Assembly: GCA_019347675.1 (NCBI GenBank) | Contig: JAHWKW010000021.1 | Location: 1 to 48,340, forward strand | DNA from: Actinomycetota bacterium | Lineage (GTDB): Bacteria > Actinomycetota > Nitriliruptoria > Nitriliruptorales > JAHWKO01 | Length of the DNA: 48,340 nt | Reading direction: 5' to 3' | Shown here: positions 19,534-37,073 of the stretch, one piece after another | Layout: each line of letters opens with the position of its first letter | Numbering within the stretch: position 1 is the first letter of the stretch | Translations under genes and position numbers: made by a program | Notes under the pieces: model-generated | What the model was told of the DNA's origin: nothing | The model's input: only the letters and a program-made list of their open reading frames with translations | The model's database searches: none

Positions 19534-19795
19534 ACCCCTGCCGGGAGAGCACGACGGCGCGTGCCCGGACCACTGGACGCTGACGCCTGCCCAGCTCTTA
19601 CCGCCGCCCGACGTTGTTGCCGCCCCAGCCGAGTCGCAGCCGCCAGGTAGCGCCGGCGCGACAACAGGCTTACGCCGAAGTTCGACACGAGCTGGCGTTA
19701 CAGCTTTCTCGCATGCTAGCAATGACGCATTCCGTATAGACGTATGGTTGGCAAGCGAGCGAGACAGTACGGTTCACCCGAGCGAGGAGACTGGG
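19534..19795. other. Upstream region of the BREX operon
   Basis: No gene is supported here. The last 110 bases are AT-richer than the surroundings and hold TATAGA (19735-19740), which could serve as a -10 box, the palindrome GCATGC, and a tandem 8-bp repeat (listed separately). The strongest ribosome site is GCGAGGAGA just before 19796. Confidence 0.4.
19733..19748. promoter_or_regulatory. Tandem repeat, candidate operator of the BREX operon
   Basis: CGTATAGA (19733-19740) is followed at once by CGTATGGT (19741-19748). Ribbon-helix-helix repressors commonly bind short tandem or inverted sites of this size. The site overlaps a possible -10 box (TATAGA) and lies 47 bases before the small regulator gene. 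It is an inferred site for autoregulation. Confidence 0.35.
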
Positions 19796-19972
19796 ATGGC
19801 AGGTCACGAAGCCTTAGAGCTCGTTCCCCTTGCTACTCGGGTCACCGATCCTCTCCGACGTGCCGTCAAGGCGCGTGCTGCTCTAGAAGGCCGTTCCGTC
19901 CAGGACCTGGTGACACAGGCCTTGGAGGAGTATCTCGAGAACCACAAGGCGCCGGAGCAGGTGGCACCGTGA
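19796..19972 (+). CDS. Ribbon-helix-helix regulator of the BREX operon
   Basis: The 58-residue protein starts at the ATG after a good GAGGAGA ribosome site. A short beta strand (ELVPLATRV) is followed by two helices (PLRRAVKARAALEGRS, then VQDLVTQALEEYLENH), the standard ribbon-helix-helix fold of CopG/Arc-type DNA binders and antitoxins. Its stop overlaps the brxA start by a GTGA, so it is translated in step with the defence genes. I infer an autoregulator of the operon; an orphan antitoxin is the alternative. Confidence 0.7.
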   Translation: MAGHEALELVPLATRVTDPLRRAVKARAALEGRSVQDLVTQALEEYLENHKAPEQVAP

Positions 19973-20808
19973 AGCGGCTTCTGCCGTCACAGGCAATCCA
20001 TATTCCGTGCCCACCATCCAACACCCGTCGTGGAGAAGCTGTGCTAGACGATGAGATCGTGCCGGAGCACGAGCGGCACAGCGCGATCACCAGCCAGTCC
20101 ATCGGCGTGCCTGAGCTCGAGACGCTCCTCGACGTCGTTCCCGCGGATGCGGATGAAGTCGCCTACGGGTCCGCGATCGTCGACGACAACGTCCTCGGGT
20201 TGAAGACCGCCACGTCGCGCGAGTGGCGGTTCAAGACCCTGCGGCGCCTTTACCTCCTCACCCCCGAGTCCGTCTTGTTCCGCGCTCTACGCGACTTGTG
20301 GGCCGGGGACCCAGAAGCTCACCCCCTGCTGGCGTGCTCGTGCGCCATGACTCAGGACACGGTCTTCCGAGCGACCGCCGCGTTAGTGCGTGACATGCCG
20401 ATCGGAGAGGAGGCCTCCTCCACCGACTTCATCGAACCCATCGAGAAGCAGTTCCCAGGGGCGTACCAGGAGTCCACGATCGCGACCATCGCGAAGAAGG
20501 CCTACGCCTCGTGGGCACAGACAGGACACTTCGGGGAGCCGAGCGCAGGCGTGCGTATCCGCAAGCGAACGACGTGCTGCCCCGAGAACGTCGCCTACGC
20601 GCTGCTGATCGGCCACCTGGAAGGGGCCCGCGGCGAGGCGCTGTTCGAGACGCTGTGGACCGACATCCTCGATCACCCACGATCACATCTCTTCGACCTG
20701 GCGTTCATGGCATCCCAGCGGGGGATGATCGAGTTCCGCAACGCCGGTGGCGTTGTGGAAGTTGGGTTCCGACAGCTCCTGCGGCCGATGGAGGGCCAGC
20801 TGCTGTGA
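19969..20808 (+). CDS. brxA: BrxA-like BREX protein (DUF1819 type)
   Basis: The 279 residues start at a GTG coupled to the RHH stop. From about residue 75 the helical core resembles BrxA: EWRFKTLRRLYLLTPESVLF, then ALVRDMPIGEEASSTDFIEP, then TIATIAKKAYASWAQTGHF, where the last segment matches the W..tG.l turn of this family. BrxA is a small DNA-binding protein of type 1 BREX systems, needed for defence. The protein is longer than usual (about 200 residues); the extra 70 residues are N-terminal and include a GTG at residue 25 (position 20041) as a second possible start. Position directly before brxB supports the call. Confidence 0.75.
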   Translation: MKRLLPSQAIHIPCPPSNTRRGEAVLDDEIVPEHERHSAITSQSIGVPELETLLDVVPADADEVAYGSAIVDDNVLGLKTATSREWRFKTLRRLYLLTPESVLFRALRDLWAGDPEAHPLLACSCAMTQDTVFRATAALVRDMPIGEEASSTDFIEPIEKQFPGAYQESTIATIAKKAYASWAQTGHFGEPSAGVRIRKRTTCCPENVAYALLIGHLEGARGEALFETLWTDILDHPRSHLFDLAFMASQRGMIEFRNAGGVVEVGFRQLLRPMEGQLL

Positions 20809-21365
20809 GCTACGTCGACGATCTCATCGAGTCCTACCGGAAGTTCGTGGACCTTCCGTGGCCGGACAGCGTCGCGCCTCCTCAACGGGTGTGGATGGCC
20901 ATTTACCCGCCGCTGTACGAGCGTCGGGTCCGGCTCAACCTCCAGGAGTTCGCCAACGCCACGATCAAGGCGGGCCACTCCTGGGGCTGCATCGACATCA
21001 CCACGTCGTTCGAGCGGTGGATGGCCGGTCACGAGTACGCCGAGTCCTACTTCGAAGAGCCCGACCTGCTCGGGACCGCTCTGCCGGCGTTCTTCTCGGC
21101 CCTCGTCAACGAGGTCCGAGAACAGCTCGAGGAGCATGACGACCCGAACGGTGTCGTCGCGCTGCTCGGGGCCGGGACGATGTTCGGGCTCGGGGACAGC
21201 GTTCGGGTGTCGGCGCTCGTCAACGAGATCAACGCCTCGATCGCCGGTCGGCTGCTGGTTTTCTTCCCAGGCCAGTACGAGCACAACAACTACCGGTTGC
21301 TCGACGCGAAGGACGGCTGGAACTACCTCGCAGTACCGATCACCACCGAGGGGGCGACGCGGTGA
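20805..21365 (+). CDS. brxB: BrxB-like BREX protein (DUF1788 type)
   Basis: The 186 residues start at the GTG overlapping brxA and end overlapping brxC. The C-terminal half is characteristic: RLLVFFPGQYEHNNYRLLDA, then DGWNYLAVPI, matching the conserved end of BrxB. The N-terminal part (APPQRVWMAIYPPLYERRVR) also fits the family. BrxB is essential in studied type 1 BREX systems and is thought to sit in a complex with other Brx proteins; its biochemical activity is unknown. Confidence 0.88.
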   Translation: MSYVDDLIESYRKFVDLPWPDSVAPPQRVWMAIYPPLYERRVRLNLQEFANATIKAGHSWGCIDITTSFERWMAGHEYAESYFEEPDLLGTALPAFFSALVNEVREQLEEHDDPNGVVALLGAGTMFGLGDSVRVSALVNEINASIAGRLLVFFPGQYEHNNYRLLDAKDGWNYLAVPITTEGATR

Positions 21366-24300
21366 CGAAGAACAAGGAACTCTTCGTTCAGGATCCCATG
21401 CAGACGAAGATCCCCAACGATGGGGTCTCCAAGGTGGTGCGACCTGAGACACAGCAGCAGTGGGAGGTCCTCGAATGGGAGCTCCGCAGCTTCGTCTGTG
21501 AGGGCGAGTACGCACGCGGTCTCGAGCGGATCCTGGACAGCTTCCTGCGGAACCTCGGGCAGGCGCAGCAGCCCGCCGTTTGGGTCAGCGGCTTCTATGG
21601 CAGCGGCAAGTCGCACCTCTGCCGCGTGCTGGAGTACTTGTGGCGGGATGTGACACTCCCTTCAGGGGAGTCCGCACGTAGTGTGGTCAACCTGCCCCAC
21701 GAGATCGACGCGCACTTCCGGGAGCTGTCCACCGAAGGGAAGCGCCAAGGCGGGCTGTGGTCCGCGGCGGGAACGCTCGGGGCCGGGAAGTCGCAGGCCG
21801 TTCGGCTCGCCTTCCTGTCCGTTCTGTTCGACGGTGCCGGCCTTCCCCAGCAGTACCCGCACGCGCGATTCGCCATCTGGGCCAAGGACAACGGCTACCT
21901 CGACAGGGTGGTGGCGGCGGTCGAGGCCGAGGGCAAGTCGTTCGAGCACGAGGTCCACAACCTCTACGTCTCACCGATCATCGCCAAGGCGCTCCTGGAG
22001 GAGGACCCCACACTGGGGGAGTCCGTCAAGGACGTCCGCGGGCTCCTCCAGGCACAGTTCCCAGCGCGCATCGAGGACATCAGCGACGAGGAGATGTTCG
22101 AGGCCATCGAGGACGTACTGCGGCTGCAGTCCGACACCGAAGGTCGCTACCCGCTGACGTTGATCGTCCTGGACGAGATGCAGCAGTACCTGGGCGACGA
22201 CAACACCAAGACGCTCGCGGTGCAGAACATCGTCGAGGGGGTCACGGCACGGTTCGACAATGCCGTGATCTTCGTCGGGACCGGTCAGTCGGCGATGGGA
22301 GGCACCCCGACGCTCCAGAAGCTCACGGACCGGTTCCCCGTCCACGTTCACCTCTCCGACAAGGACGTCGAAACCGTCGTCCGCCAGGTCATTCTCCGCA
22401 AGAAGCCCGATCGTCGCGCCGAGCTCGAGAGCGTCCTTGAGGACGTGTCCGGGGAGATCGACCGGCACCTCGGCGGAACCAAGATCGCCCCCGTCACCGC
22501 CGACAAGCAGGACCTCGTCGCTGACTACCCGCTCCTGCCTACGAGGCGTCGCTTCTGGGAACTCGCACTGCGTGCGCTCGACAAGGCCGGCAAGGCCGGG
22601 GTCCTGCGAACCCAGCTACGGATCGTCCACGAAGCTACGAGGGAGGTGGCGGAGGAACCCGCCGGCTACGTCGTGGGCGCCGACTTCCTCTACCACCAGC
22701 AGGCACCCACGTTGCAGCAGAGCGGTGAGCTGCTCAAAGAGATCAGCGAATCCATCCTCGCGCTGAAGGACGAGGGTGGGCCCGCCGGCGAGCTGAAGTC
22801 CCGGATCTGCGCACTGGTGTTCCTCATCACCGAGATCCCGGCCCAGATGATCGGCACGGGTGACACCGGGCTGCGAGCTACCGCGCCGTACATCGCCGAC
22901 CTACTGGTGGAGGACCTGCCGCACGGGGGGGCGCAGATCCGCAAGCGCGTCCCCGAGCTGCTCGATGAGCTGACCGAAGCGGGTCGGCTCATGCGGATCG
23001 ACGACGAGTACCGGCTGCAGACCGAAGAAGGAGCGGAGTGGGAGAAGGACTACCGGACCCGGCTGACCGCAACCCGCGACGAGCCGGGCAAGCTCGCCAC
23101 GCTCCGCAACGAGCGCCTGCTCCGCGCCGTCGACGAGGCACTTGTGGGACTTCGCCTGACCCATGGGCAGAGCAAGACGCACCGGAAGGTGGTCCCCCAC
23201 TACGGCACCGATGAGCCGACCGCGGACGAGGGCGACATCCCCGTGTGGGTCCGCGACGAATGGACGGTCACGGAGTCGGCCGTCAAGAACGCGGCCGCAC
23301 AAGCCGGCGACGCCGACCCGGTGGTCCACGTCCTGCTCCCCAAACGCGATGCCGAGACGATCAAGGACGCACTGGCGTCGTACGCCGCCGCCCAGGAGAC
23401 GCTGCACTCGAAGCCGACCCCGCAGACGGATGAGGGCAAGCAGGCGCAACGGGCGATGAAGGGCCGTGTCGCCGCCGAAGAGGACAGGCTGACCAGCCTC
23501 TTCCAGGAGGTCGTCGCCAACGCTCGCGTCTACCAGGGGGGCGGCAACGAGGTGAACGCGCCGACCCTCCGAGAAGCCGTCGAGATCGCCGCGCAGCGAT
23601 CGCTGGTGCGGCTCTTTCCGAAGTTCGACGTAGCCGACGACGCGAACTGGGGCAAGGTCGTTAACAAGGCGCGCGACGGCGCGCCCGACGCACTCCAGGC
23701 CGTCGGCTACGCCGGTGAGGTCCCGGCCCATCCCGTCTGCAAGGAGGTCCTGGCAGCCATCAGCGCCGCAGGAACCAAGGGCACCGAGATCCGGGCACGG
23801 TTCTCAAGTCCACCGTACGGCTGGGACGAGAACGCCGTCCGCGGCGCGCTCATGGTGCTGCTCGCAACACGCCACATCCGCGCCGCGCAGGACGGCGTCG
23901 CCCTGAGCGGACCGAAACAGCTCGAACCACGCCAGATCGGCAAGACGACCTTCTACAAGGAAGAGGAACCGCCGACGACGTCCCAGCGGATGGCCGTCCG
24001 GGGACTGCTCGCTACGGCCGATATCCCGTACGAGAACAGCCAGGAGCAGACCCAGATCCCAGCCCTTCTGCAGAAGCTGCTCGACCTGGCGTCCGACGCC
24101 GGAGGAGCTCCTCCACTTCCCGAGCCGCCGGACACCTCCCACATCGAGGCGCTGCAGTCGTTGGCTGGCAACCAGCAGTTCCGCGAAGTGGCCGACGACC
24201 ACGAACAGCTGAAGAAGAACCTCAACGACTGGCGCGCCGCGGCCCGTCGCCGTGAGGAACGCCAGAAGGAGTGGGCCGCGCTCGAAGCCCTCCTCCATCA

Positions 24301-24835
24301 CGGAAGAGAGCTCGACGTCACGGCCGAGATCGCCGCCCAGCAGGACGCGATCAGAGACGACCGCCAGCTGCTCGACGATCCCGACCCCGTCCGACCCCTC
24401 CTAGATGCGATCACGGATCCACTTCGCGAGGCCGTCACCGCAGCGGCGGAACAACTTCGCTCGCATCACGACGAGGTGATCGCCGACCTTGAGGCGTCCG
24501 ACGAGTGGCGGCACCTGGGAGACGACGACTGGGCGGAAATCATCGCCGAAGTGGGACTCCAGCGGCCCGGCGACATCGACGTCTCCACGCAGGACAAGCT
24601 GCTGGCCGTTCTCAACGACGCACCATTGAGTAGCTGGAAGGACCGCACCGAGGTCGTTCGCGCACGCGCCAAGCGCGCCCGCGAGCTGGCCGCCAAGAAG
24701 CTCGAACCGGAGGCGGTTCGCGTCACACTGGACTCCGCAACGCTGAAGAGCAAGGACGACGCCAACTCCTACATCGCCGACGTCCGTCAGCGGATCATGC
24801 AACACATCGACGACGGCCACACCGTCATCATCTGA
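21362..24835 (+). CDS. brxC: BrxC-type large P-loop ATPase
   Basis: The 1157 residues start at a GTG coupled to brxB. Walker A is GFYGSGKSH (77-85), within VWVSGFYGSGKSHLCRVL, the hallmark of BrxC/PglY. Walker B is LIVLDEMQQYL (about 267-277). FVGTGQSAMGG near residue 315 fits a sensor strand. The long C-terminal half is helical with charged segments (for example around 930-1000). The family is an AAA+-like ATPase common to nearly all BREX types and needed for both phage blocking and methylation. The N-terminal signature preceding the P-loop (IPNDGVSKVVRPETQQQWEV) is unlike the usual type 1 opening, so this is a divergent branch. pglX follows after 17 bases. Confidence 0.9.
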   Translation: MTKNKELFVQDPMQTKIPNDGVSKVVRPETQQQWEVLEWELRSFVCEGEYARGLERILDSFLRNLGQAQQPAVWVSGFYGSGKSHLCRVLEYLWRDVTLPSGESARSVVNLPHEIDAHFRELSTEGKRQGGLWSAAGTLGAGKSQAVRLAFLSVLFDGAGLPQQYPHARFAIWAKDNGYLDRVVAAVEAEGKSFEHEVHNLYVSPIIAKALLEEDPTLGESVKDVRGLLQAQFPARIEDISDEEMFEAIEDVLRLQSDTEGRYPLTLIVLDEMQQYLGDDNTKTLAVQNIVEGVTARFDNAVIFVGTGQSAMGGTPTLQKLTDRFPVHVHLSDKDVETVVRQVILRKKPDRRAELESVLEDVSGEIDRHLGGTKIAPVTADKQDLVADYPLLPTRRRFWELALRALDKAGKAGVLRTQLRIVHEATREVAEEPAGYVVGADFLYHQQAPTLQQSGELLKEISESILALKDEGGPAGELKSRICALVFLITEIPAQMIGTGDTGLRATAPYIADLLVEDLPHGGAQIRKRVPELLDELTEAGRLMRIDDEYRLQTEEGAEWEKDYRTRLTATRDEPGKLATLRNERLLRAVDEALVGLRLTHGQSKTHRKVVPHYGTDEPTADEGDIPVWVRDEWTVTESAVKNAAAQAGDADPVVHVLLPKRDAETIKDALASYAAAQETLHSKPTPQTDEGKQAQRAMKGRVAAEEDRLTSLFQEVVANARVYQGGGNEVNAPTLREAVEIAAQRSLVRLFPKFDVADDANWGKVVNKARDGAPDALQAVGYAGEVPAHPVCKEVLAAISAAGTKGTEIRARFSSPPYGWDENAVRGALMVLLATRHIRAAQDGVALSGPKQLEPRQIGKTTFYKEEEPPTTSQRMAVRGLLATADIPYENSQEQTQIPALLQKLLDLASDAGGAPPLPEPPDTSHIEALQSLAGNQQFREVADDHEQLKKNLNDWRAAARRREERQKEWAALEALLHHGRELDVTAEIAAQQDAIRDDRQLLDDPDPVRPLLDAITDPLREAVTAAAEQLRSHHDEVIADLEASDEWRHLGDDDWAEIIAEVGLQRPGDIDVSTQDKLLAVLNDAPLSSWKDRTEVVRARAKRARELAAKKLEPEAVRVTLDSATLKSKDDANSYIADVRQRIMQHIDDGHTVII

Positions 24836-24852: not shown

Positions 24853-27800
24853 ATGCGAGCACTCTCCAGCGACCTTCGACGGCAACTCGAGTCGGCGGTG
24901 TTGGCCGGGCGTGGTGCTGCTGAGGTCGGGGTGCGGGCCGCGATGCAGCGGCTCGGACTGCCTGACCAGCCCAAGCCGTCGTACCTGGATGAGCGCGAGG
25001 CGCGTCTGCGTAAGGCGCTACTTGCGAAGCGCCGTCAGCTGGGTGGCGACTTCGAGGTGCTGGTGTGGGAGGCCGCCTACGAGCAGTGGCACCGGCTGCT
25101 GTTCGCACGGTTCTTGGCCGAGAATGGGTTGTTGCGGCACCCGGAGTTCGACGCGCCGGTGACGCTGGCGGAGTGTGAGGAGCTGGCCGAGGAGCTGGCC
25201 GAGCCGGACGGCTGGTCGGTGGCGGCGCGGTTCGCGGCGGAGATCCTGCCGGGGATCTTCCGGCTGGAGGACCCGTGTGTGCAGCTGCGGTTAGCACCGG
25301 AGCATCGGGTGGGGTTGGAGAGGATTGTTGAGGGAGTGCCGGTCGAGGTGTTCGCGGCGGACGATAGTCTGGGGTGGGTCTACCAGTACTGGCAGTCGGA
25401 GCGGAAGGACCAGGTCAACACGTCCGAAGTGAAGATCGGGGGGGCGGACCTTGGGCCGCTGACGCAGTTGTTCACCGAGAACTACATGGTGCGGTGCCTA
25501 TTAGAGAACTCTCTGGGAGCGTGGTGGGCGGCCCGGCATCCGGACTCTCCACTGGTCAAGGAGTTCGAGTTCCTCCGGTTCGACGACGACGGCCAGCCAG
25601 CAGCCGGCAGCTTCGACGGGTGGCCGGACACGGTCGCCGAAGTGACAGTGATGGACCCGTGTTGCGGCTCGGGACATTTCTTGGTCGAAGCGTTCGGGAT
25701 GCTGCGGCGCATGCGCGCCGAGGAAGAAGAGCTAGGTCCGGTCGCGGCGCAGGATGCGGTGCTGGCTGACAACTTGTTCGGGTTGGAGCTGGACCCGCGG
25801 TGTGTACAGATCGCGATGTTCGCGGTCGCGTTGGCGGCGTGGAAGCAAGGTGGCGGCTGGCGGCGGCTGCCGACCCCGAACATCGCCTGCTCGGGTATCC
25901 CTGCCAAGGCGCCCCTAGAGGAGTGGACAGCGCTAGCGGACGGTGACGAGCGGCTCCAACGGGCGTTGGAGCGGCTTCACGCTCTGTTCAAAGATGCTGA
26001 CACCCTGGGGAGCCTGATCGACCCCCGGCGCGTCGCCGAGATGGCCAATGCCGCCGGCCTGCAGCGATCGTTCCAGGACGTGGACTTCGACGAGGTCGCT
26101 CCGCTGCTGGAGAAGGCCGCCGCCCGAGAAACCGACGATCCCGCCACCGCCGTCCTCGGAGCGGATGCGGCCGGAATCGCCCGCGCCGCGAGCCTTTTGT
26201 CACGCTCATACACGTTGATTGCCACCAACCCCCCATACCTAGGGCGAGGGTCACATGGCGAGCTGCTTCAGCAGCATCTAGACCGCAACTATCCGGCAGG
26301 TGCCGATGAACTCGGAGCTGCGTTCTTCCTGCGTTCGCTCGACCTTCTGACGCTAAACGGTTCCGCATCGGCAGTCCTCCCCCAGAATCTCTTGTATCTC
26401 AAGGCCCACTCATCTTTGCGTTCGCGCCTTCGCGATCTCGATCTTTCCATGATTGCGCGGCTCGGCGCGGGCGCCTTTGGCTCGATCAGTGGGCAGGTCG
26501 TCCAAGTCGCTCTCGTAATCGCCTCGCTGCTCATTCCTGAAAGTGGCTCCCGAATCGCTTGGATCGAAGCAAGAGAGGAACCGTCACCGCCACGCAAGGC
26601 GCGGCGGCTCGCCACTGGGAACCCCGTCCGCGTACAGCTTCAGCAACCTGACAAGGAAATGCCATTTTCTCCTATACAGCGGGCCGGTCTCAGCCAGCTC
26701 TCAGACTTTGGTAGGGCCTGGCAGGGACTTGTGACGGGGGATACAAACCGCTACGTCCTCAACTTCTGGGAGGTAACTACGGATCCAGATGTTTGGCAGA
26801 AGTATGTGATCGCCCCCGACTTCACCGCTCCTTACCGGGGCCGTACGTCCCTCCTGAGGTGGGAACGTGGGAGGGGGGCGCTGGTGAAGTCAGGGAAGGC
26901 TCACAATTTCAACCCTGAACGGGTGCTGGACCGCCGAGGCGTGTTGATTGCTCAGAGCGGAAGCTTGTCTTCCACAATCTACGATGGGGAACCCTTCAAT
27001 GATGCCTCGTGTCCTCTCATCCCAAAGTCTGATGACGACTTGCCAGCGCTCTGGGCGTACTGTTCTTCGGATGAATATGCGGAAGCCATCCGGTCAATCA
27101 ACCAATCGATAGTTGTTCGACCTGGTTACCTCACCGCGGTGCCGTTCGACGTGGAGCGGTGGCGTGCGGTTGCGACGGAGGAGTTCCCGGACGGTCTGCC
27201 CGAACCGTGGTCGGATGACCCGACCCAGTGGTTGTTCGAAGGGCGTCCGGAGGTGGCGACGGAACCGTTGCAGGTCGCTGTCGGCAGGCTGGTGGGGTAC
27301 CGGTGGCCGGAGCAGCCCGGCGAGGACGACCTCGACGAGTTCTCGGATGCCGACGGGATTGTGTGCCTGCCTCCGGTGGGTGGGGAGCTCCCGGCCGCGG
27401 ATCGGCTCACCGCGTTGCTGGCCGGGGCATACGGCGATCAGTGGTCACCGGCGCTACTACGGAAGCTGTTGGAGCAAGCGGGCTCGAAAAAGAAGAGATT
27501 GGCGGGTTGGCTCCGGGACGACTTCTTCAAGCATCACTGCAAGGTGTTCGACAACCGGCCGTTCGTCTGGCAAATCGCGGATGGGCGTAAGGATGGGTTC
27601 TCGGCGCTGGTGAACTACCACGGGTTGAATCGGTCCGGTCTGGAGAAGCTTACCTACACATACCTGGGTGATTGGCTGGAGCGCCAGCGTGCTGACGCGG
27701 CCGAGGATGTGGCTGGAGCGGACGTTCGGTTGGGGGCAGCGCGGAAGTTGAAGGACAAGCTCGAGCGGATCCTGGAGGGTGAGCCGCCGTTCGACATCTA

Positions 27801-28041
27801 CGTGCGGTGGAAGCCGCTGCCCGAGCAGCCGATCGGTTGGGACCCGGACCTCGATGACGGGGTGCGGTTGAACATCCGCCCGTTCGTCGAAGCCGATGTG
27901 TTGGCAGGCCCGTCGTCGGTGCCGCGGGTGCATTGGAGGAAGGATCGGGGCAAGAACCCAGACGGGTCCGACCGGCGCAACGACCTGCACTACACCATCG
28001 CCGAGAAGCAACAAGCACGCCAGAAGGCCGGCAAGGCATGA
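24853..28041 (+). CDS. pglX: PglX-type BREX adenine methyltransferase
   Basis: The 1062-residue N6-adenine DNA methyltransferase has the SAM-binding motif DPCCGSGHF (268-276) and the catalytic NPPY (459-462, in IATNPPYLGRG). N-terminal helices (about 1-260) are followed by the methyltransferase core, then a target-recognition region (about 550-760) and a C-terminal helical part. PglX marks host DNA at a non-palindromic site and also helps recognise phage DNA in BREX. The stretch at about 26180-27120 has a clearly lower GC content than the rest (some 60-base lines below 50%, against about 75% upstream), pointing to an exchanged recognition domain. It overlaps pglZ by ATGA. Confidence 0.92.
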   Translation: MRALSSDLRRQLESAVLAGRGAAEVGVRAAMQRLGLPDQPKPSYLDEREARLRKALLAKRRQLGGDFEVLVWEAAYEQWHRLLFARFLAENGLLRHPEFDAPVTLAECEELAEELAEPDGWSVAARFAAEILPGIFRLEDPCVQLRLAPEHRVGLERIVEGVPVEVFAADDSLGWVYQYWQSERKDQVNTSEVKIGGADLGPLTQLFTENYMVRCLLENSLGAWWAARHPDSPLVKEFEFLRFDDDGQPAAGSFDGWPDTVAEVTVMDPCCGSGHFLVEAFGMLRRMRAEEEELGPVAAQDAVLADNLFGLELDPRCVQIAMFAVALAAWKQGGGWRRLPTPNIACSGIPAKAPLEEWTALADGDERLQRALERLHALFKDADTLGSLIDPRRVAEMANAAGLQRSFQDVDFDEVAPLLEKAAARETDDPATAVLGADAAGIARAASLLSRSYTLIATNPPYLGRGSHGELLQQHLDRNYPAGADELGAAFFLRSLDLLTLNGSASAVLPQNLLYLKAHSSLRSRLRDLDLSMIARLGAGAFGSISGQVVQVALVIASLLIPESGSRIAWIEAREEPSPPRKARRLATGNPVRVQLQQPDKEMPFSPIQRAGLSQLSDFGRAWQGLVTGDTNRYVLNFWEVTTDPDVWQKYVIAPDFTAPYRGRTSLLRWERGRGALVKSGKAHNFNPERVLDRRGVLIAQSGSLSSTIYDGEPFNDASCPLIPKSDDDLPALWAYCSSDEYAEAIRSINQSIVVRPGYLTAVPFDVERWRAVATEEFPDGLPEPWSDDPTQWLFEGRPEVATEPLQVAVGRLVGYRWPEQPGEDDLDEFSDADGIVCLPPVGGELPAADRLTALLAGAYGDQWSPALLRKLLEQAGSKKKRLAGWLRDDFFKHHCKVFDNRPFVWQIADGRKDGFSALVNYHGLNRSGLEKLTYTYLGDWLERQRADAAEDVAGADVRLGAARKLKDKLERILEGEPPFDIYVRWKPLPEQPIGWDPDLDDGVRLNIRPFVEADVLAGPSSVPRVHWRKDRGKNPDGSDRRNDLHYTIAEKQQARQKAGKA

Positions 28042-30347
28042 CCGAAATCCTCCTCGACCAGATCGAGACCCACCTCCAGCAGGCGTTGACCTACAACGAG
28101 AACGCGGAGGTGGCTCCCGTGGCCCTGCTATGGCCCGACGGGGACGAGCAGTTCGTCGAGACCGTCGATGCGCTGCGCGATCGTCTGCCGTTGCTCACGC
28201 TTGGCGACCTCGACGAAGACATGCGGCGAGGGCCTTCCTACTGGCTCAGGTGTGCAGTGGCAGGGACGGTGGAGGTCGACCGCCCTGAAGGGGTGCCCGT
28301 CGTCTACTTGCCAGGCGTCCGCAGAGAAGATCTGCGTGCGATCGAGGACTGCCCCCGAGAACTCGCGCCGATTGCGGAGCTCCAGTACCGAGGGCAGTGG
28401 TTCGCGCATCCCAACGGCAGGGACTGGACCGTTCGAGGCTTGCTCTCGAACCGTGAACGTGGGCTCGGCCTCCAGCTGGCTGGCGACGCCGCGACCGGTG
28501 ACGCACTCCTCAATGCATTCGAACAGCTCCTCGCACTTCCGAGTCGGCGGCTCGCAGCCCAGTACATCGATGCCGAGTTCCTCCACCGGCTGCTCAACCC
28601 CGACCCGGTGGCGCGCCTCCTGGAGTGGCTCGATGACCCCACAGGTTTCCAACAGCGGCTCGGCACCAGGGAGTGGAAGGCGTTCGTTGGCCTAGGCCAG
28701 AGCGAGTTCGACTTCGACCCTGGGGCGGAAGGCGAGATTACCGGCGGCCGCCTCCTTGGTGAGCGTCGAGGGCGATGGTCGGAGGTGTGGAGCCGCTTCG
28801 AGCAGAGCCCTGAGCGCTACAGCGGTATCGAGGCGCGTCTACGCAAAGGAAAGCCCACGGACCAGCTGTTCGCTGGCCAGCCGGGTGCGTGGCCACAGGA
28901 CAACGAGGAAGCGGAGACCAGGCTCCGCCTTGCACTCCAGGATCTTGCCGAGGTCCCCGCCAGCGATGCGCGAGAAGCAATCGACAAACTCTGGAACGAG
29001 CACCGCGACCGGCGCAACTGGGTCTGGGCCAAGCTCGACCAGGCCCCGCTTGCTTTCGCGCTGGAACAGCTGCACCGACTCGGGCAAGCCACAAGTTCCG
29101 CTGTGACCGGGGACGTCGACGTCCTCGCCAACGCCTACGCTGACGACGGCTGGAAGGCTGACGATGCGCTTATAGCGGCCCTTCAGGCCGCGACGGGCGC
29201 ATCGGACCGCGAGGCGGTGGTGGCGGCCGCCAACGCGATCTACCGGCCCTGGGTCGACGCGAGCGCGCGTGCACTCCAACGCGCGATCGGTCCACTCGCG
29301 AACTCGGGCACCTACAGCCCGGGACCCAGTGCTTCGACCGACCCGGGGACCGTGACGGTGTTCGTCGACGGTCTGCGGCTTGACCTCGCTCACCGGTTAG
29401 GCGAACGTCTGGGCGGCCTGGACGTGCTGATCGAGATCGCCTTGGCGGCGCTTCCCACCGTGACCGAGACCGCGAAGCCCGTCCTGACACCCGTACCGGC
29501 GGGAAGTCTCGCGCCCGGCAAGGATCTCGGGCCGGTTCGGGCGAGTAGCGGGGCCAAGGCCACCATCAACGTCCTTCGTGGCTTCATGGCCGAGGCGGGC
29601 GTCCATGTCCTTCGAGGTGCCGAGACCGGCGACCCATCCGGGACCGCCTGGACCGAAACCGCGGACATCGACAAGCGCGGGCACGACTTCGGCGTGACCT
29701 TCGTCGACGAGCTCGACCGAGAGCTCGATGACATCGCCAAGCGCGTCAAGACGCTGCTCGATGCCGGGTGGGAACAGGTCGACGTGGTCACCGACCACGG
29801 CTGGCTGCTCCTGCCTGGGGGGACGGAGAGGGTAGATCTGCCGGCGGCGACGGTGGAGGTCAAGAAGGGCAGGTGCGCCCGCTTGAAGGACGGCGCAGAT
29901 GTCTCGGTGCCGACCGTCCCATGGCACTGGGACAGCAACGTTCGCATCGCCCTTGCCCCGGGTACGAGCTGCTTTCAAGAGAGCAAGGGGTACGAGCACG
30001 GGGGCGTGAGCCTGCAGGAGTGCGTTGTCCCGCGGCTCTCCGTCCGGCCTGGAGCTGTTCAGACGACGACCGGCGGCGCGGCGATCACGAAGGTCAAGTG
30101 GCTGGGCCTGATGTGCCGCGTCGAGTACGAGAACATCGCCCCCGGCGCCAAGGTCGACATCCGTGGCCGACCCGCGGATCCCAGCACGAGCGTCGCCGAG
30201 ACCGTCAAGGAGACCATCGGGTCCGGACGCCAGTCCCTCCACATCCCAGACGAGGAACTCGAGGGCGAGCCGGCGTACGTCGTGGTCGTCGCGGACGACG
30301 GCAGCATCCTAGCCCAACGTGATGTGGTGATCGGAGCCAACCGATGA
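28038..30347 (+). CDS. pglZ: PglZ-type BREX phosphatase-fold protein
   Basis: The 769 residues start at the ATG overlapping pglX. The PglZ domain lies in the C-terminal half. VFVDGLRLDL (D444, D449) supplies the first metal-binding strand, and VVTDHGWLLLPGG (D586, H587) the second cluster of the alkaline-phosphatase superfamily fold. The N-terminal 400 residues are mainly helical. The wording of these motifs resembles the type B group of type 1 PglZ proteins, which I hold as likely rather than certain. PglZ forms a complex with PglX in studied systems. It ends with an ATGA overlap to the brxL-kinase gene. Confidence 0.9.
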   Translation: MTEILLDQIETHLQQALTYNENAEVAPVALLWPDGDEQFVETVDALRDRLPLLTLGDLDEDMRRGPSYWLRCAVAGTVEVDRPEGVPVVYLPGVRREDLRAIEDCPRELAPIAELQYRGQWFAHPNGRDWTVRGLLSNRERGLGLQLAGDAATGDALLNAFEQLLALPSRRLAAQYIDAEFLHRLLNPDPVARLLEWLDDPTGFQQRLGTREWKAFVGLGQSEFDFDPGAEGEITGGRLLGERRGRWSEVWSRFEQSPERYSGIEARLRKGKPTDQLFAGQPGAWPQDNEEAETRLRLALQDLAEVPASDAREAIDKLWNEHRDRRNWVWAKLDQAPLAFALEQLHRLGQATSSAVTGDVDVLANAYADDGWKADDALIAALQAATGASDREAVVAAANAIYRPWVDASARALQRAIGPLANSGTYSPGPSASTDPGTVTVFVDGLRLDLAHRLGERLGGLDVLIEIALAALPTVTETAKPVLTPVPAGSLAPGKDLGPVRASSGAKATINVLRGFMAEAGVHVLRGAETGDPSGTAWTETADIDKRGHDFGVTFVDELDRELDDIAKRVKTLLDAGWEQVDVVTDHGWLLLPGGTERVDLPAATVEVKKGRCARLKDGADVSVPTVPWHWDSNVRIALAPGTSCFQESKGYEHGGVSLQECVVPRLSVRPGAVQTTTGGAAITKVKWLGLMCRVEYENIAPGAKVDIRGRPADPSTSVAETVKETIGSGRQSLHIPDEELEGEPAYVVVVADDGSILAQRDVVIGANR

Positions 30348-32794
30348 TGGCGCTCGACGACCTCGACCAGCTTGCGGCACGTGTCTTCGAGGGCTACCTC
30401 GTCAAGAAGGACCTCGCCCAACAGTTCCGCGGTCAGTACCCCGTACCGACCTACGTCGGCGAGTTCCTCCTCGGGCGTTACTGCGCCACCACCGACCCGA
30501 ACGAGATCGCCGAGGGGCTGGAGATCGTGCGGCGGTCGATGAGCGAACGCACCGTCCGGCCAGGCGAGGAGGAGCTGTTCAAGTCGCGGGCGCGGGAGAA
30601 GGGCGCGATCAAGATCATCGATCTCCTCCGCGCGCGCCTCCACGCGTCGTCCGACAGTTACAAGGCCGAGCTGCCAAGCCTGCAGCTGAAGAACATCCAC
30701 ATCTCCGCGGACCTGGTCAACCAGCACGATCGCATGCTGACGGGCGGGTTCTACGCAGAGGTCACCCTCAACTACATGGCGGCCTTCGCGCGCGAGGATC
30801 GGGACTCACCGTTCATCATCGACTCCATCCGGCCGATCCAGATGTCCACTCGCGATGCGCTGCTGACGTTCATCGAGGGGCGCAGAGAGTTCACGTTGGA
30901 GCAGTGGCGCCATCTGCTGTTGCGCAGCGTGGGGTTCGAGCCAGCAAAGCTGACCGCCCGCCAACAGGACATCCTGCTGTGCCGGATGGTCCCGTTCGTC
31001 GTTAACAACTACAACATGGTGGAGCTCGGACCGCGGGGGTCCGGCAAGTCCCATCTTTTCCAGCAGATCTCACCCTACTCGCACCTCGTCTCGGGGGGTC
31101 GGGCGAGTGTCGCCAACATGTTCGTCCACCTCGGCACCGGCAAGCGCGGTCTCGTCGCGCAGTACGACGTCGTCTGCTTCGACGAAGTGTCCGGTGTCCA
31201 GTTCGACTCCAAAGAAGGGGTGAACATCCTCAAGGGCTACATGGAGTCGGGGGAGTTCAGCCGTGGTCGCGAGTCGATCAAGGCCACCGGCGGAATCGTC
31301 ATGGTGGGGAACTTCGACGTCGACGTGGAGGACCAGCTGCGCAAGGGTCACCTCCTCGAGTCGTTGCCCAAGGAGATGCGTGACGACACCGCGTTCATGG
31401 ATCGCCTGCACGCCTACCTGCCCGGTTGGGACGTCCCCAAGCTCGGCCCGGCGTACTTCACCGACCACTTCGGTTTCGTCAGTGACTTCCTCGCTGAGTG
31501 CTGGACGCACCTGCGCAACACGAGCCGGCTCGACGCGATCCGGGGCCGTGTTGAATGGGGCAGTCACCTCTCGGGCCGCGACCGCAAGGCTGCGGAGAAT
31601 ACGATGAACGGCCTCCTGAAGCTGCTCTACCCGGATCCGGAGACCGAGGTCCCCGCCGAGTTCCTGGACTGGGCCGCCCGCCTCGCCGTCGAGCTTCGCC
31701 GGCGCGTCAAGGAACAACAGGCGTTCATCGGAGAGGCCGAGTTCGGCAACGTCGACCTTTCCTACTCCGTCGACGGCGGGCCACAGAACGTCGTCGTCTG
31801 CGACGAGTCGCTCCGTTACCGGCGCGCGGCCCGCGACTCGGTGTCGCAGGCAGACGAAGAGCCCTCGCTCCCAGCGCCGGATCCCCAAGAGGTTGCCACA
31901 TCCGCAGCCACCGTCTCACGTGCCTACGACGTCGGGGACGCGGTCGCCGCCCGGTTCGAAGTTGAGGCGGTCTTGGGCAGCGGCGGGTTCTCGCGCGTCT
32001 ACAAGGTCCGCGACCGGGTGGAAGACGTCCCACGAGCGCTCAAGCTGTTCGAAAGCGCGGCCGGTTACGACGCCGTCCGTCGCGAGATCAACGCGTTGAG
32101 GAGGGTGAACCACCCTCACGTCGTGGAGGTGATCTGGGCCGACAAGACCCCGGAGGGCGAGTGGTACCTCATCATGGAGTTCGTCGAGGGGGACCTGCTC
32201 ACCGAGTACGCATCCGGCGAGAAGCACCTCCGAGACCGTGAGGCCGTCGACCTTGCCCTCGACATCCTCGACGCGCTCGTGGCGATCCACCCGGACTCCT
32301 CGAGACTCGAGGAACTGGAAGAGAAGCGTCGCGACGGCGAACTCTCCCCGGACGAGTACTACGAGAAGCAGGAACTGCACGACCAAGGACTGGTACACCG
32401 CGACATCAAGCCCCAGAACATCGTGCTGACGCGGTCGGGCGCCAAACTGCTCGACTTCAACATCGCGTCGCGCGTCGGTGATCCGGTCCGGACCGTCTCA
32501 GGCACGCCCCCGTACCAGCCGCCCGACGTCGACTACACCCGCTGGGACGTCTCCACGGACCTCTTCGCTGTGGGCGTCACCCTGTACGAGCTGCTCTGCA
32601 ACGGCCAGCACCCGTATCCGGGCGGGCAGCCCATGACAGGTGAGCAGGTACGCGACCCACGGGGCACCAGGCCCGAGCTCGACGCCAAGCTCGCCGAGTT
32701 CCTCGTCCGCGCTTGCGCCCCCTACCGGGAGGACCGGTTCGCCACCGCAGCTCAAATGAAGAGTGAGCTTGAGGTCATCAGGACCGAGATGTAG
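30344..32794 (+). CDS. brxL: BrxL AAA+ domain fused to a Ser/Thr protein kinase
   Basis: The protein has 816 residues. Residues 1-480 are a good BrxL: FEGYLVKKDL at the start, Walker A GPRGSGKSH (229-237), Walker B VVCFDE (276-281), GYMESGEFSRG (298-308), and HAYLPGWDVPK (356-366). In ordinary BrxL the AAA+ part is followed by a Lon-like domain. Here a linker (about 480-535) leads to a kinase: glycine loop GSGGFSRV (545-552), K567 in ALKLF, E581, HRDIKPQN (685-692), D704 in a DFN variant of DFG, and GTPPYQPPD (720-728). All catalytic residues are present. A charged insert of about 30 residues (about 650-680) precedes the HRD motif. No Lon Ser-Lys dyad region is seen. The kinase resembles PglW-type enzymes, which is inference. 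Confidence 0.93.
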   Translation: MMALDDLDQLAARVFEGYLVKKDLAQQFRGQYPVPTYVGEFLLGRYCATTDPNEIAEGLEIVRRSMSERTVRPGEEELFKSRAREKGAIKIIDLLRARLHASSDSYKAELPSLQLKNIHISADLVNQHDRMLTGGFYAEVTLNYMAAFAREDRDSPFIIDSIRPIQMSTRDALLTFIEGRREFTLEQWRHLLLRSVGFEPAKLTARQQDILLCRMVPFVVNNYNMVELGPRGSGKSHLFQQISPYSHLVSGGRASVANMFVHLGTGKRGLVAQYDVVCFDEVSGVQFDSKEGVNILKGYMESGEFSRGRESIKATGGIVMVGNFDVDVEDQLRKGHLLESLPKEMRDDTAFMDRLHAYLPGWDVPKLGPAYFTDHFGFVSDFLAECWTHLRNTSRLDAIRGRVEWGSHLSGRDRKAAENTMNGLLKLLYPDPETEVPAEFLDWAARLAVELRRRVKEQQAFIGEAEFGNVDLSYSVDGGPQNVVVCDESLRYRRAARDSVSQADEEPSLPAPDPQEVATSAATVSRAYDVGDAVAARFEVEAVLGSGGFSRVYKVRDRVEDVPRALKLFESAAGYDAVRREINALRRVNHPHVVEVIWADKTPEGEWYLIMEFVEGDLLTEYASGEKHLRDREAVDLALDILDALVAIHPDSSRLEELEEKRRDGELSPDEYYEKQELHDQGLVHRDIKPQNIVLTRSGAKLLDFNIASRVGDPVRTVSGTPPYQPPDVDYTRWDVSTDLFAVGVTLYELLCNGQHPYPGGQPMTGEQVRDPRGTRPELDAKLAEFLVRACAPYREDRFATAAQMKSELEVIRTEM

Positions 32795-34435: not shown

Positions 34436-35172
34436 ATGGCCGGGACCGCCCGGTCCAACCACCCCGGCTCGGATAACCGGGTCGAACTTCATCAGTTGGC
34501 GCCGGTGGACAACGTGCGACGCCTGCAACGCAAGCTATGGGCTGCGGCCAAGCAGTCCCCGGAGCGGCGTTTCCCGACCGGCGCTGGCATCCACGCGACG
34601 GAGTGCTGGTCCGCTACGCGGACGACTTCGTCGTGATGTGCCGCAACCAGGCGCAGGCCGAGTCCGCGCTGGCAAGGCCCGGGCCATCCTGGCCGGGCAG
34701 GGTCTGGAGCTTCATCCGGAGAAGACGAAGGTCGTTGACCTACGGGAAGGCACCGACGGGTTCAACTTCCTGGGCTGCCACTTCCATGCTCGTGTGTCGG
34801 GTCGGCTGCTGGAGCGCGGCATCCGCCGCTACTACCTGCACCGGTGGCCCTCACAACGGTCGATGAAGCGCGCACGCGCCAGGATCAGAGCCCTCACCGG
34901 CCGCAACCGAGCCCACCAGGACATCCGGGACGTGATCGCGCTGATCAACCCGATCCTGCGTGGGTGGGGCAACTACTTCCGCACCGGAAACGCCTCGAAG
35001 AAGTTCAACCAGCTCGATGGCTACGTCTGGCGGCGGCTGCGACGGCTCATGGTGGCTCGTTACGGTCGCAACCTGCACGCCGGTCGGGCTGACGCCTGGA
35101 CTCGCGAGTGGGTTCGAGGAACACGGGCTGCACCGCCTCCGAGGCACCGTCCGCTATCCGGGAGCTGCGTAA
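34436..35172 (+). pseudogene. Broken group II intron reverse transcriptase/maturase
   Basis: The protein is spread over all three frames. The N-terminal segment VRRLQRKLWAAAKQSPERRF lies in one frame. After a deletion of RT blocks 1-4, VLVRYADDFVVMCRNQ (catalytic YADD) lies in a second. LHPEKTKVVD, FNFLGCHFHARV and the maturase segment ILRGWGNYFRTGNASKKFNQ lie in a third. The true C-terminus GLHRLRGTVRYPGAA returns to the second frame and ends at 35172. The junctions are near 34580, 34675 and 35110. The enzyme cannot be made. Confidence 0.85.
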
Positions 35173-35194
35173 CCATGCCAAGAAGACCATCGGT

Positions 35195-35228
35195 AAGCCG
35201 TGTGCGGGAGAACCGCACGCACGGATTG
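35195..35228 (+). ncRNA. Group II intron domain V
   Basis: The AGC catalytic triad (35196-35198) opens a hairpin. CCGTGTGCGG (35198-35207) pairs with CCGCAC and ACGG (35213-35224), separated by the conserved two-base bulge, with a GAGA-type loop. This 34-nt shape is the most conserved part of group II introns and fixes the 3' end of the element. It appears intact even though the intron's protein is dead. Confidence 0.85.
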
Positions 35229-35279
35229 AAAGGGGAAAGCGGAAACGGGCCCTCATGGGCACCGCGCCGCTGACTACCA

Positions 35280-35759
35280 ATGGATCCGGGCCCTGACGCT
35301 GTTGAGCGACGGGATCAGCTAGTTCGCGAGGCTTGCCGACAGGCAGGTCTACGGCTCGCTGCTTCGACGACTCCAGACACCGCCCTGATCGCCACCGGCG
35401 AAATCCTCTTCTGGGTCGTAGCGGCTGACGACAGCATGTTGAGATCTCGCCCCGGCTATGCCGCCTACCGCAACGAGGAGAGCGAGGATCGGAGGCTACT
35501 GATGCAAGGGCTCCGGTACCCGCGAAATGTCCTGGCGCATGAGTCTGAAGCCTGGGAGTTCGGTACCGCCGACGTGTACATCGACGTCTACACGAACATC
35601 TACGGGGTGTGGGTGTGGACGGATCTCGGCCCTCCGCGCCGTGCCGTGGACAGCGTCCTCGCCCAGCACGCCGCCTACCACACGCGCCTTGCAGGTCAGC
35701 CCGTGATTACGACAACGCGACAGGCCTTGGCGATGCTCGAGGAGTACTGGAATCGCTAA
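35280..35759 (+). CDS. Hypothetical protein with an RNxxxH (HEPN-like) motif
   Basis: The 159 residues start at the ATG that lies 2-3 bases after the group II intron. The helix LIATGEILFWVVAADD and the segment GLRYPRNVLAHESE (R82, H87) form the R-x4-H signature seen in HEPN ribonucleases and related domains. The C-terminal half is Trp/Tyr-rich with a final helix. The intron may have inserted just before this gene, or may have split it and left only this exon. I do not recognise a named family. Confidence 0.55.
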   Translation: MDPGPDAVERRDQLVREACRQAGLRLAASTTPDTALIATGEILFWVVAADDSMLRSRPGYAAYRNEESEDRRLLMQGLRYPRNVLAHESEAWEFGTADVYIDVYTNIYGVWVWTDLGPPRRAVDSVLAQHAAYHTRLAGQPVITTTRQALAMLEEYWNR

Positions 35760-36023
35760 GCATCTCTGGCCTCCGTCCCGTCACGCAGGTGTGTCGCCGG
35801 CCTGGGGGGAGGCCGACCCGAATTCCAACAGGACCCCCTCGGCCCTCCGATCGTCAAGTCGCCCCGGTCGCGCACAAGCATAGGGACATACGTTCAGGCC
35901 CAACTGGGGAAGCCTCCGGAAGTTCCCCCAACGCCATCGAGGATGTTGCGTTGACGATCACATCGGCGACCGCCCGCGCGGGGCTGTAAGGGCGAAATCC
36001 ATGTCGGGTCGGTGGAGCATCGC
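35760..36023. other. Convergent intergenic gap
   Basis: There are 264 bases between the HEPN-like gene and the convergent recombinase gene. I see no supported gene, RNA or strong hairpin. Confidence 0.35.
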
Positions 36024-37073
36024 TTATCGTCCGTCGGGGGAGGGGTGGGGTTGGTGTTGGCGTAGCAGGTGGGTGATGGGTGCGGCGCGAGCGGTTTCGT
36101 GCAGCCCGGCTCCTGACAGGCGTAGGTAGATCGAGGTGGTTGAGATGTCGGCGTGGCCCAGCAGGGCTTGTAGTTCGGCGATGGTGGTGCCGTTGTCGAG
36201 CTGACCCAGTGCGTAGCTGTGGCGGAACGCGTGGGCCTTCTCACCGGGGCGGATACTCACCCCGGCGGCGGCCAGCCACCGGTCGACCAGGTGGTCTAGC
36301 GCTTGGGTGTTGAACCGGCGCCCGTCGGTGCGCACGAACAGGTGCTGGTCGCTGGCCTGCCCGCCAAGCTGGCGGGCACGGCGGTCGGTGAGGTAGGCGT
36401 CGATCGCGTCGAGGACCTCGACGGCAACCGGCACGACCCGCTGCTTGCCGCCCTTGCCGGTGACCCGCAGCCGGTAGGCGTCGTCGCGTCCGACGTCGCC
36501 GATCTTCATGGCGGTCAGCTCGCTGGCGCGCAGCCCCGCGCCGGCCAGTACCGCCACCAGCGCGATGTCACGGGTGGGCCACGCCGCCGTCGAGTCGGGG
36601 TCGGGGGTGGCGGCAGCCTTCAGGATGCGGGCCAGCTCGGCGTCGGAGAACGCCACCGGCAGCTGGGAGGGCGCAGCTGGCGTCTCGAAGCCCAATGTCG
36701 GGTCGGACGTCAGGTGGCCGTGACGGACGAGCCAGCGGCACAGGCCCCGCCACGCCGACAGCATGCGCGCCCGGGTGGAGGCCGCGTAGCAATCGGCCAC
36801 GAGCGCCGAGGCAACGGCTGCCAGGTTGTCCTCGGTCAGGTCGGCGACGGTGACGCGCGCCAGCTGACGGTTGGTCGCCGCGTTGGCCCCGGCCGCGTCG
36901 TCGCCGTCGGGCGGGTCGGGATCGGCTCGGCCGTGGGCGTCGGCGGCGCGGCGGGCCAGACCGGCCAGATCCGAGCGGTACGCACGTTCCGAGGCGGGCG
37001 ACAGCCCACGCCGAGAGCGGGCGCGCTTGTCGTCCACCCAGGCGTCCACCAGCTCGACCAGGCCGCCGTCCAC
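36024..37073 (-). CDS. Tyrosine recombinase (XerC/XerD-like integrase)
   Basis: The 349 residues start at a GTG. The N-terminal SAM-like core-binding domain (about 5-125) is followed by a catalytic domain with all key residues: R182 (GAGLRASEL), K207 or K210 (TGKGGKQR), H281 and R284 (HAFRHSYA), H307 (LLGHADISTT) and the nucleophile Y316 (SIYLRLSG). It should therefore be active. The N-terminal domain contains a low-complexity Asp/Pro stretch (about 50-63) that is absent from the truncated second copy at 42.6 kb. A palindrome lies directly upstream, and both are duplicated at the far side of the next gene module. Confidence 0.92.
   Translation of the reverse strand: MDGGLVELVDAWVDDKRARSRRGLSPASERAYRSDLAGLARRAADAHGRADPDPPDGDDAAGANAATNRQLARVTVADLTEDNLAAVASALVADCYAASTRARMLSAWRGLCRWLVRHGHLTSDPTLGFETPAAPSQLPVAFSDAELARILKAAATPDPDSTAAWPTRDIALVAVLAGAGLRASELTAMKIGDVGRDDAYRLRVTGKGGKQRVVPVAVEVLDAIDAYLTDRRARQLGGQASDQHLFVRTDGRRFNTQALDHLVDRWLAAAGVSIRPGEKAHAFRHSYALGQLDNGTTIAELQALLGHADISTTSIYLRLSGAGLHETARAAPITHLLRQHQPHPSPDGR

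What the first reader, a model, noticed from the sequence alone, without database searches (positions are those of the whole stretch)
30344..32794. BrxL whose Lon-like domain is replaced by an intact Ser/Thr kinase
Residues 1-480 carry the BrxL AAA+ motifs (GPRGSGKSH, VVCFDE, HAYLPGWDVPK). In known type 1 BrxL a Lon-like domain follows; here a linker leads to a kinase domain with glycine loop, K567, E581, HRDIKPQN and D704, and no Lon part. Type 2 BREX uses a separate kinase, PglW, so this looks like a hybrid: a DNA-remodelling AAA+ ring directly coupled to phosphorylation. It could switch the BREX complex on or act as an effector. The DFN variant of DFG and the charged insert before HRD are further marks of a special kinase group.
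Basis: partly seen in the sequence, partly recalled or inferred. Interest (0 to 1): 0.92.

Follow-up and report, generated by a model that had tools for sequence, protein, structure and literature searches.

The report
BrxL DNA-ring protein carrying a kinase
In a complete BREX anti-phage operon of an actinobacterium, the DNA-encircling protein BrxL has had its usual Lon-like tail replaced by an apparently active protein kinase, an arrangement shared with a few mycobacteria and relatives, which suggests that binding phage DNA could switch on a phosphorylation response.

Summary
ORF 30344-32794 (816 aa) is one intact reading frame: BrxL_N, then BrxL AAA+ ATPase, then a complete Ser/Thr kinase domain. 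No Lon-like domain is detectable. It is the last gene of a full type-1 BREX operon (brxA-B-C-pglX-pglZ-brxL) in an actinobacterium. It is not a joining error: the same protein, 72% identical end to end, ends the same operon in Mycobacterium triplex and M. kyorinense, and also occurs in a Mycobacterium MAG and (with assembly gaps or frame breaks) in Phytoactinopolyspora and a MAG of the window's class. These BrxL cores form one clade (support 100) inside Lon-tailed BrxLs, so one domain swap explains them. The kinase keeps all catalytic residues and is under purifying selection (dN/dS about 0.07). Its nearest model is the MADS kinase MAD6 (most MADS kinases share 'DFN'), rather than PglW. A 28-residue insert before HRD was seen only in these fusions. 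The same BrxL position also carries HKD/PLD nucleases (published) and Schlafen AlbA_2 domains (seen here), so it looks like an effector slot. Most likely mechanism (inferred): ring assembly on unmodified DNA clusters and activates the kinases. New variant of a known kind.

The parts
30344..32794 (+). brxL-kinase fusion gene, 816 aa, last gene of the BREX operon; ATGA overlap with pglZ
30383..30775 (+). BrxL_N domain (residues 14-144)
   Evidence: Pfam PF20442, E 1.6e-43
30812..31759 (+). BrxL AAA+ ATPase (residues 157-472), Walker A GPRGSGKSH 229-237, Walker B VVCFDE 276-281 intact
   Evidence: Pfam PF13337, E 2.8e-120; PDB 8emc/8emh phmmer E 8e-123, Foldseek E 2e-31
31784..31930 (+). linker, residues 481-529, fast-evolving and predicted disordered (488-525)
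31931..32791 (+). Ser/Thr protein kinase domain (residues 530-816) in place of the Lon-like CTD; G-loop 545-550, K567, E581, D687, N692, D704, P+1 T721, R798
   Evidence: Pfam PF00069, E 1.3e-33; alignments
32291..32374 (+). 28-residue charged insert (residues 650-677) between kinase helix E and HRD; predicted helical hairpin, weakly SHOCT-like (E 0.09-0.5, not significant)
19744..20808 (+). brxA (BrxA match in the C-terminal two thirds of the ORF)
   Evidence: PADLOC E 5e-65
20511..21365 (+). brxB (match from residue 100; true start probably downstream)
   Evidence: PADLOC E 3e-65
21362..24835 (+). brxC
   Evidence: PADLOC 1352 bits; NCBIfam NF033441 above cut-off
24853..28041 (+). pglX (brxX) adenine methyltransferase
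   Evidence: PADLOC 1201 bits
27933..30347 (+). pglZ, BREX-1 type B
   Evidence: NCBIfam NF033450 E 7e-239, above cut-off

Best explanation
A type-1 BREX operon whose BrxL had its inactive Lon-like C-terminal domain replaced, once in evolution, by a defence-type Ser/Thr kinase. Shown: the architecture, its conservation in at least five genomes, its single origin on the BrxL tree, intact catalytic residues, purifying selection, and the operon context. Inferred: as in solved BrxL, the N-terminal and AAA+ parts assemble with ATP as a hexameric ring around DNA, probably after the BrxABCXZ complex meets unmodified phage DNA. The six kinase domains sit on flexible linkers where the CTDs normally are. 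Ring assembly brings them close together so that they phosphorylate one another (conserved T717, S719 and T721 in the activation segment) and become active. The active kinase then acts as an effector, phosphorylating host or phage proteins to block phage growth, in the same slot where other BrxLs carry an HKD nuclease or a Schlafen AlbA_2 domain. The mechanism step is about 0.5 likely; the domain-swap reading about 0.97.
For: Domain make-up. The Lon tail is absent by HMM both ways. Colinear fusions occur in M. triplex (L014), M. kyorinense (L016) and a Mycobacterium MAG (L015) at about 72% identity, and in Phytoactinopolyspora (L017), whose three frame breaks coincide with N-runs. The same-class genome G060 has both halves but with frame breaks through most of its BREX genes. 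BREX genes precede brxL in the same order wherever the flank was held. Kinase-type BrxL is one clade, support 100, nested in Lon-type BrxL. Catalytic residues are invariant, and dN/dS is 0.07 for the kinase against 0.03-0.04 for the BrxL core in M. kyorinense comparisons. The kinase groups with MADS defence kinases. The CTD slot also carries Lon_C, MIT_C/PLD and SLFN_AlbA_2 domains. In solved BrxL, the N-terminal and AAA+ domains make the DNA contacts and the rings, and the CTD joins two rings tail to tail (PMC10164562). HKD-tailed BrxL is interpreted as an effector (PMC12839542).
Against: No experiment shows kinase activity, DNA-triggered activation or a substrate. Losing the Lon-like CTD removes the known ring-ring contact, so ring assembly itself may differ. 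The AAA+ and activation-loop parts of the AlphaFold model are of low confidence. BrxL is dispensable for defence in some BREX systems (PMC12839542).
Confidence: 0.5

Rival explanations
1. The kinase is an internal regulator: it phosphorylates BREX proteins (PglX, PglZ, BrxC, BrxL) to switch the complex between methylation and restriction, and does not attack phage or host proteins.
For: It is coupled to the BREX complex in the last gene of the operon. Kinases do regulate immune operons elsewhere, e.g. CapK is activated by single-stranded DNA (PMC13373217). In type 2 BREX the kinase PglW is a separate core component (PMC12839542).
Against: The same BrxL slot carries nuclease or Schlafen domains in other lineages, which reads more like an effector slot. 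No conserved phosphosite in other BREX proteins was tested.
Confidence: 0.3
2. The kinase mainly replaces the structural job of the Lon-like CTD (joining two rings, perhaps through kinase dimers), with catalysis secondary or limited to autophosphorylation.
For: The known CTD role is tail-to-tail ring pairing (PMC10164562). The helical insert could be a dimerization surface.
Against: All catalytic residues are kept and the domain is under purifying selection. A purely structural role would not be expected to keep a full active site.
Confidence: 0.12
3. Artefact: two neighbouring genes joined by a sequencing or assembly error.
For: Some relatives show frame breaks at or near the junction (L017, L109).
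Against: Three other genomes carry the same uninterrupted ORF. The break in L017 is an assembly gap of Ns. Codon-position G+C is unbroken across the junction.
Confidence: 0.01

Closest known systems
BrxL of type 1 BREX with Lon-like CTD (TIGR02653; PDB 8EMC/8EMH, Acinetobacter)
   Same: BrxL_N and AAA+ domains, about 44% identical to typical plasmid-borne BrxLs and 62-68% to the nearest Lon-tailed ones; same operon place
   Different: The Lon-like CTD (residues about 498-679 in the solved BrxL) is absent and a 287-residue kinase stands there; TIGR02653 covers only 5-475 and stays below cut-off (512 against 628 bits)
BrxL-HKD endoDNase variants of type 1 BREX (PMC12839542)
   Same: Lon-like CTD replaced by a catalytic domain on the same BrxL core
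   Different: Nuclease (PLD/HKD fold) instead of kinase
MAD6 kinase of the methylation-associated defence system (NF047741)
   Same: Best curated kinase match; shares the DFN motif (three of four compared), the PD in place of PE, and the WD..D.FA.G...EL stretch
   Different: MADS-type kinases fetched here are frames of about 1270-1415 aa with tandem kinase units, beside an N-6 methylase on the plasmids; no BrxL fusion, and no 28-residue insert
PglW of type 2 BREX (NF033442)
   Same: Ser/Thr kinase in a BREX system
   Different: NERD + pseudokinase + kinase + C-terminal sensor, 1400 aa; no AAA+ BrxL; lower score (85-100 bits)
PD-T4-6 stand-alone defence kinase (PADLOC)
   Same: Defence-associated Ser/Thr kinase fold; best PADLOC kinase model (153 bits)
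   Different: No AAA+ partner domain; many PD-T4-6 models match this kinase about equally, so the match may be general

Membership tests
BrxL (BREX type 1/4) | BrxL_N + BrxL AAA+ core with Walker A and Walker B | tested here: met
   Pfam PF20442 and PF13337 far above cut-off; TIGR02688 447 bits against cut-off 329
BrxL with Lon-like CTD (TIGR02653) | Lon-like C-terminal domain | tested here: not met
   TIGR02653 512 bits, below cut-off 628, coverage stops at profile position 467 of 675; Lon-tail HMM E >= 0.5; Lon-type L025 scores 636 bits
Type 1 BREX operon | brxA, brxB, brxC, pglX, pglZ, brxL in one operon | tested here: met
   PglZ is the BREX-1 type B equivalog
Active protein kinase | G-loop, VAIK Lys, helix-C Glu, HRD Asp and Asn, DFG Asp, activation-segment Thr, subdomain XI Arg | tested here: met
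   All present and invariant in four fusions; DFG reads DFN
Active protein kinase | phosphotransfer activity | not testable with these tools
   needs biochemistry
MAD6 (MADS) | whole-protein match to NF047741 above 460 bits | tested here: not met
   191 bits; kinase portion only
PglW (type 2 BREX) | whole-protein match to NF033442 above 990 bits | tested here: not met
   85 bits; kinase portion only

The most novel reading that the evidence does not exclude
BrxL is a DNA-loaded ring with an exchangeable effector slot. In this lineage it is a DNA-sensing kinase: assembly of the AAA+ ring on unmodified phage DNA activates six clustered kinases, which stop infection by phosphorylation instead of DNA cutting.
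Probability: 0.45. Interest if true: 0.82.

Novelty: new variant of a known kind. Interest (0 to 1): 0.66.

Why it matters
How BrxL contributes to BREX defence is unknown, and its Lon-like tail has no known catalytic activity. Lineages in which that tail is swapped for a kinase, a nuclease or a Schlafen domain give a handle with a measurable output: if DNA and ATP switch the kinase on, BrxL ring assembly is the activation step of BREX restriction. It would also link phosphorylation to a type 1 BREX system. No paper found in the searched library mentions a BrxL-kinase or BrxL-Schlafen fusion, but preprints and most subscription journals are not held there and supplements could not be read.

Tried and rejected
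(1) Joining error: rejected. (2) Hidden or separate Lon-like domain: none found. (3) Kinase from PglW: disfavoured, not excluded. (4) Insert as a real SHOCT domain: only E 0.09-0.5, not claimed. (5) Kinase fusions on plasmids or viral contigs: none; no plasmid record covers 80% of the query in one place, the four viral-contig BrxLs match only residues 1-488, and plasmid hits that seemed to reach residue 596 belong to BrxLs of ordinary annotated length. The kinase part alone has only distant matches in phages. (6) The kinase family outside BrxL: no match at E <= 1e-38 in 396 genomes of the phylum except the window's own; in a sample of 198 at 1e-22, two others match only one lobe, one of them the MADS kinase of G164. 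(7) Flavobacterium L037, matched to residue 760 at first, is a Lon-tailed BrxL followed by a separate kinase gene, not a fusion. (8) AlphaFold of full length (pLDDT 61) and kinase alone (63) were of modest quality; they served only for fold assignment and the linker/hairpin hints. (9) Searches of the paper library for MADS/MAD6 gave nothing relevant.

Full report
What is there. Window 30344-32794 (+) is a single open frame of 816 codons. Pfam finds BrxL_N at residues 14-144, the BrxL ATPase at 157-472 and a protein kinase in the C-terminal 287 residues. The BrxL part is the clear relative of the solved BrxL, PDB 8EMC (phmmer E 8e-123; Foldseek E 2e-31). The kinase part is closest in the PDB to M. 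tuberculosis PknB. The gene overlaps pglZ by ATGA and closes a full operon of brxA, brxB, brxC, pglX, pglZ (type B) and brxL. Six WhiB genes put the genome in Actinomycetota (WhiB as an actinobacterial marker is from general knowledge, and only Corynebacterium among the 14 control genomes rang).

Is it an artefact? No. A scan of one genome per species (84,980 species) found 295 relatives; the best 80 were kept. Four of them match over the kinase: Mycobacterium triplex (L014), a Mycobacterium MAG (L015), M. kyorinense (L016) and Phytoactinopolyspora endophytica (L017). The first three have one uninterrupted ORF, about 72% identical to the window protein (in L015 the contig starts at residue 27). 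In L017 the frame is broken, but each of its three frame breaks (BrxB, PglX, BrxL) lies at a run of Ns in the assembly. A genome of the window's own class (G060) has both halves in the same order, with frame breaks through most of its BREX genes, so a poor assembly is likely but not shown. An Acidobacteriaceae contig (L018) ends at BrxL residue 443; it sits in the same clade, but its tail was not seen.

Domain swap. The nearest non-fused BrxLs (62-68% identical over residues 1-488) carry a Lon-like tail of about 190 residues: L025 has Lon_C and scores above the TIGR02653 cut-off. An HMM of 18 such tails does not find the fusion tails (E >= 0.5), nor any other ORF in the window or the fusion loci. 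In a tree of 59 BrxL cores, the seven rows labelled kinase (L018 by position only) form one clade with support 100, inside the Lon-tailed BrxLs of Actinomycetota and others. One replacement followed by spread between lineages is the simplest reading.

The slot is not unique to kinases. Among BrxLs found in about 300 genomes of the window's phylum, tails other than Lon were common. Four look like PLD/HKD-type tails (one tested by Pfam and confirmed as MIT_C) and five like AlbA_2 tails (three tested and confirmed as SLFN_AlbA_2), in L098, L101, L102, L103 and L108. In the tree the AlbA_2 tails need two changes. The HKD tails were described in print by 2026 (PMC12839542, 1030 of 2913 taxa). That paper discusses Schlafen RNases near BREX loci, but the passages read do not report a BrxL-Schlafen or BrxL-kinase fusion.

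The kinase. The glycine loop, K567, E581, D687, N692, D704, T721, D739 and R798 are all present and identical in four fusions. Between M. kyorinense and the other two mycobacterial copies the kinase dN/dS is about 0.07, against 0.03-0.04 for the BrxL part (0.13 against 0.055 for the closest pair, L014-L015), while the linker evolves faster. So the kinase is maintained. The DFN variant is shared with three of four MADS-type kinases compared, as is PD in place of PE after the activation loop, so DFN does not mark a group special to this protein. Curated models rank MAD6 (191-195 bits) above PknB (135-155) and PglW (85-100). The kinase tree places the fusions with MADS kinases (85/89, not a strong branch) and apart from the genome's own PknB-like kinases. 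The 28-residue charged insert between helix E and HRD occurred in all five fusion kinases and in none of the other kinases aligned. Models suggest a helical hairpin, but confidence is modest.

How it may work. In solved BrxL, the N-terminal and AAA+ domains bind DNA and make the ring, ATP promotes assembly on DNA, and the Lon-like CTD lies away from the DNA and pairs two rings (PMC10164562). With that CTD replaced by a kinase on a flexible linker, a DNA-loaded ring would hold six kinases together, a usual way to switch on kinases of the HRD type (general knowledge). The activation segment keeps T717, S719 and T721. Since the same slot holds nuclease or Schlafen domains elsewhere, an effector role is favoured (about 0.5) over regulation of the BREX complex (about 0.3) and over a mainly structural role (about 0.12). 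These are inferences; no activity has been measured.

How common. In 396 sampled genomes of the phylum, only the window's genome carries this kinase subfamily at E <= 1e-38. In the species-level scan, four of the 80 best BrxL relatives have the kinase. That scan used a few short peptide patterns and keeps contigs of at least 3 kb, so it is a lower bound. No fusion was seen in plasmid or viral collections.

Verdict. It is a new variant of a known component (BrxL) in a known system (type 1 BREX), with a testable mechanism.

Noticed in passing
L098:1498-3480 (+); L101:886-3012 (-); L108:880-2988 (-); also L102, L103: BrxL proteins of the same phylum whose C-terminal domain is a Schlafen AlbA_2 domain in place of the Lon-like one; L098 arose apart from the others on the tree.
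   Followed up: partly
L037:12070-13791 (+): In a Flavobacterium MAG, a separate kinase gene (574 aa) lies directly behind a Lon-tailed brxL; its C-terminal part looks TPR- and FHA-like by eye, not tested by profile.
   Followed up: partly
L109:4190-10380: Two pglX copies in tandem in the BREX operon of the same-class genome G060, with part of a pglZ-like stretch between them.
   Followed up: no
window 34638-37073: A group II intron maturase-specific domain (34638-35273 +) and a tyrosine integrase (36024-37073 -) just downstream of the BREX operon, so the operon may lie on a mobile island; no tRNA gene was found in the window.
   Followed up: no
window 37222-39273 (-): 683-aa ORF with a dCTP deaminase-like domain at its C-terminal part (residues 477-630), an enzyme type also known from phage defence; the N-terminal 470 residues have no Pfam match.
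   Followed up: no
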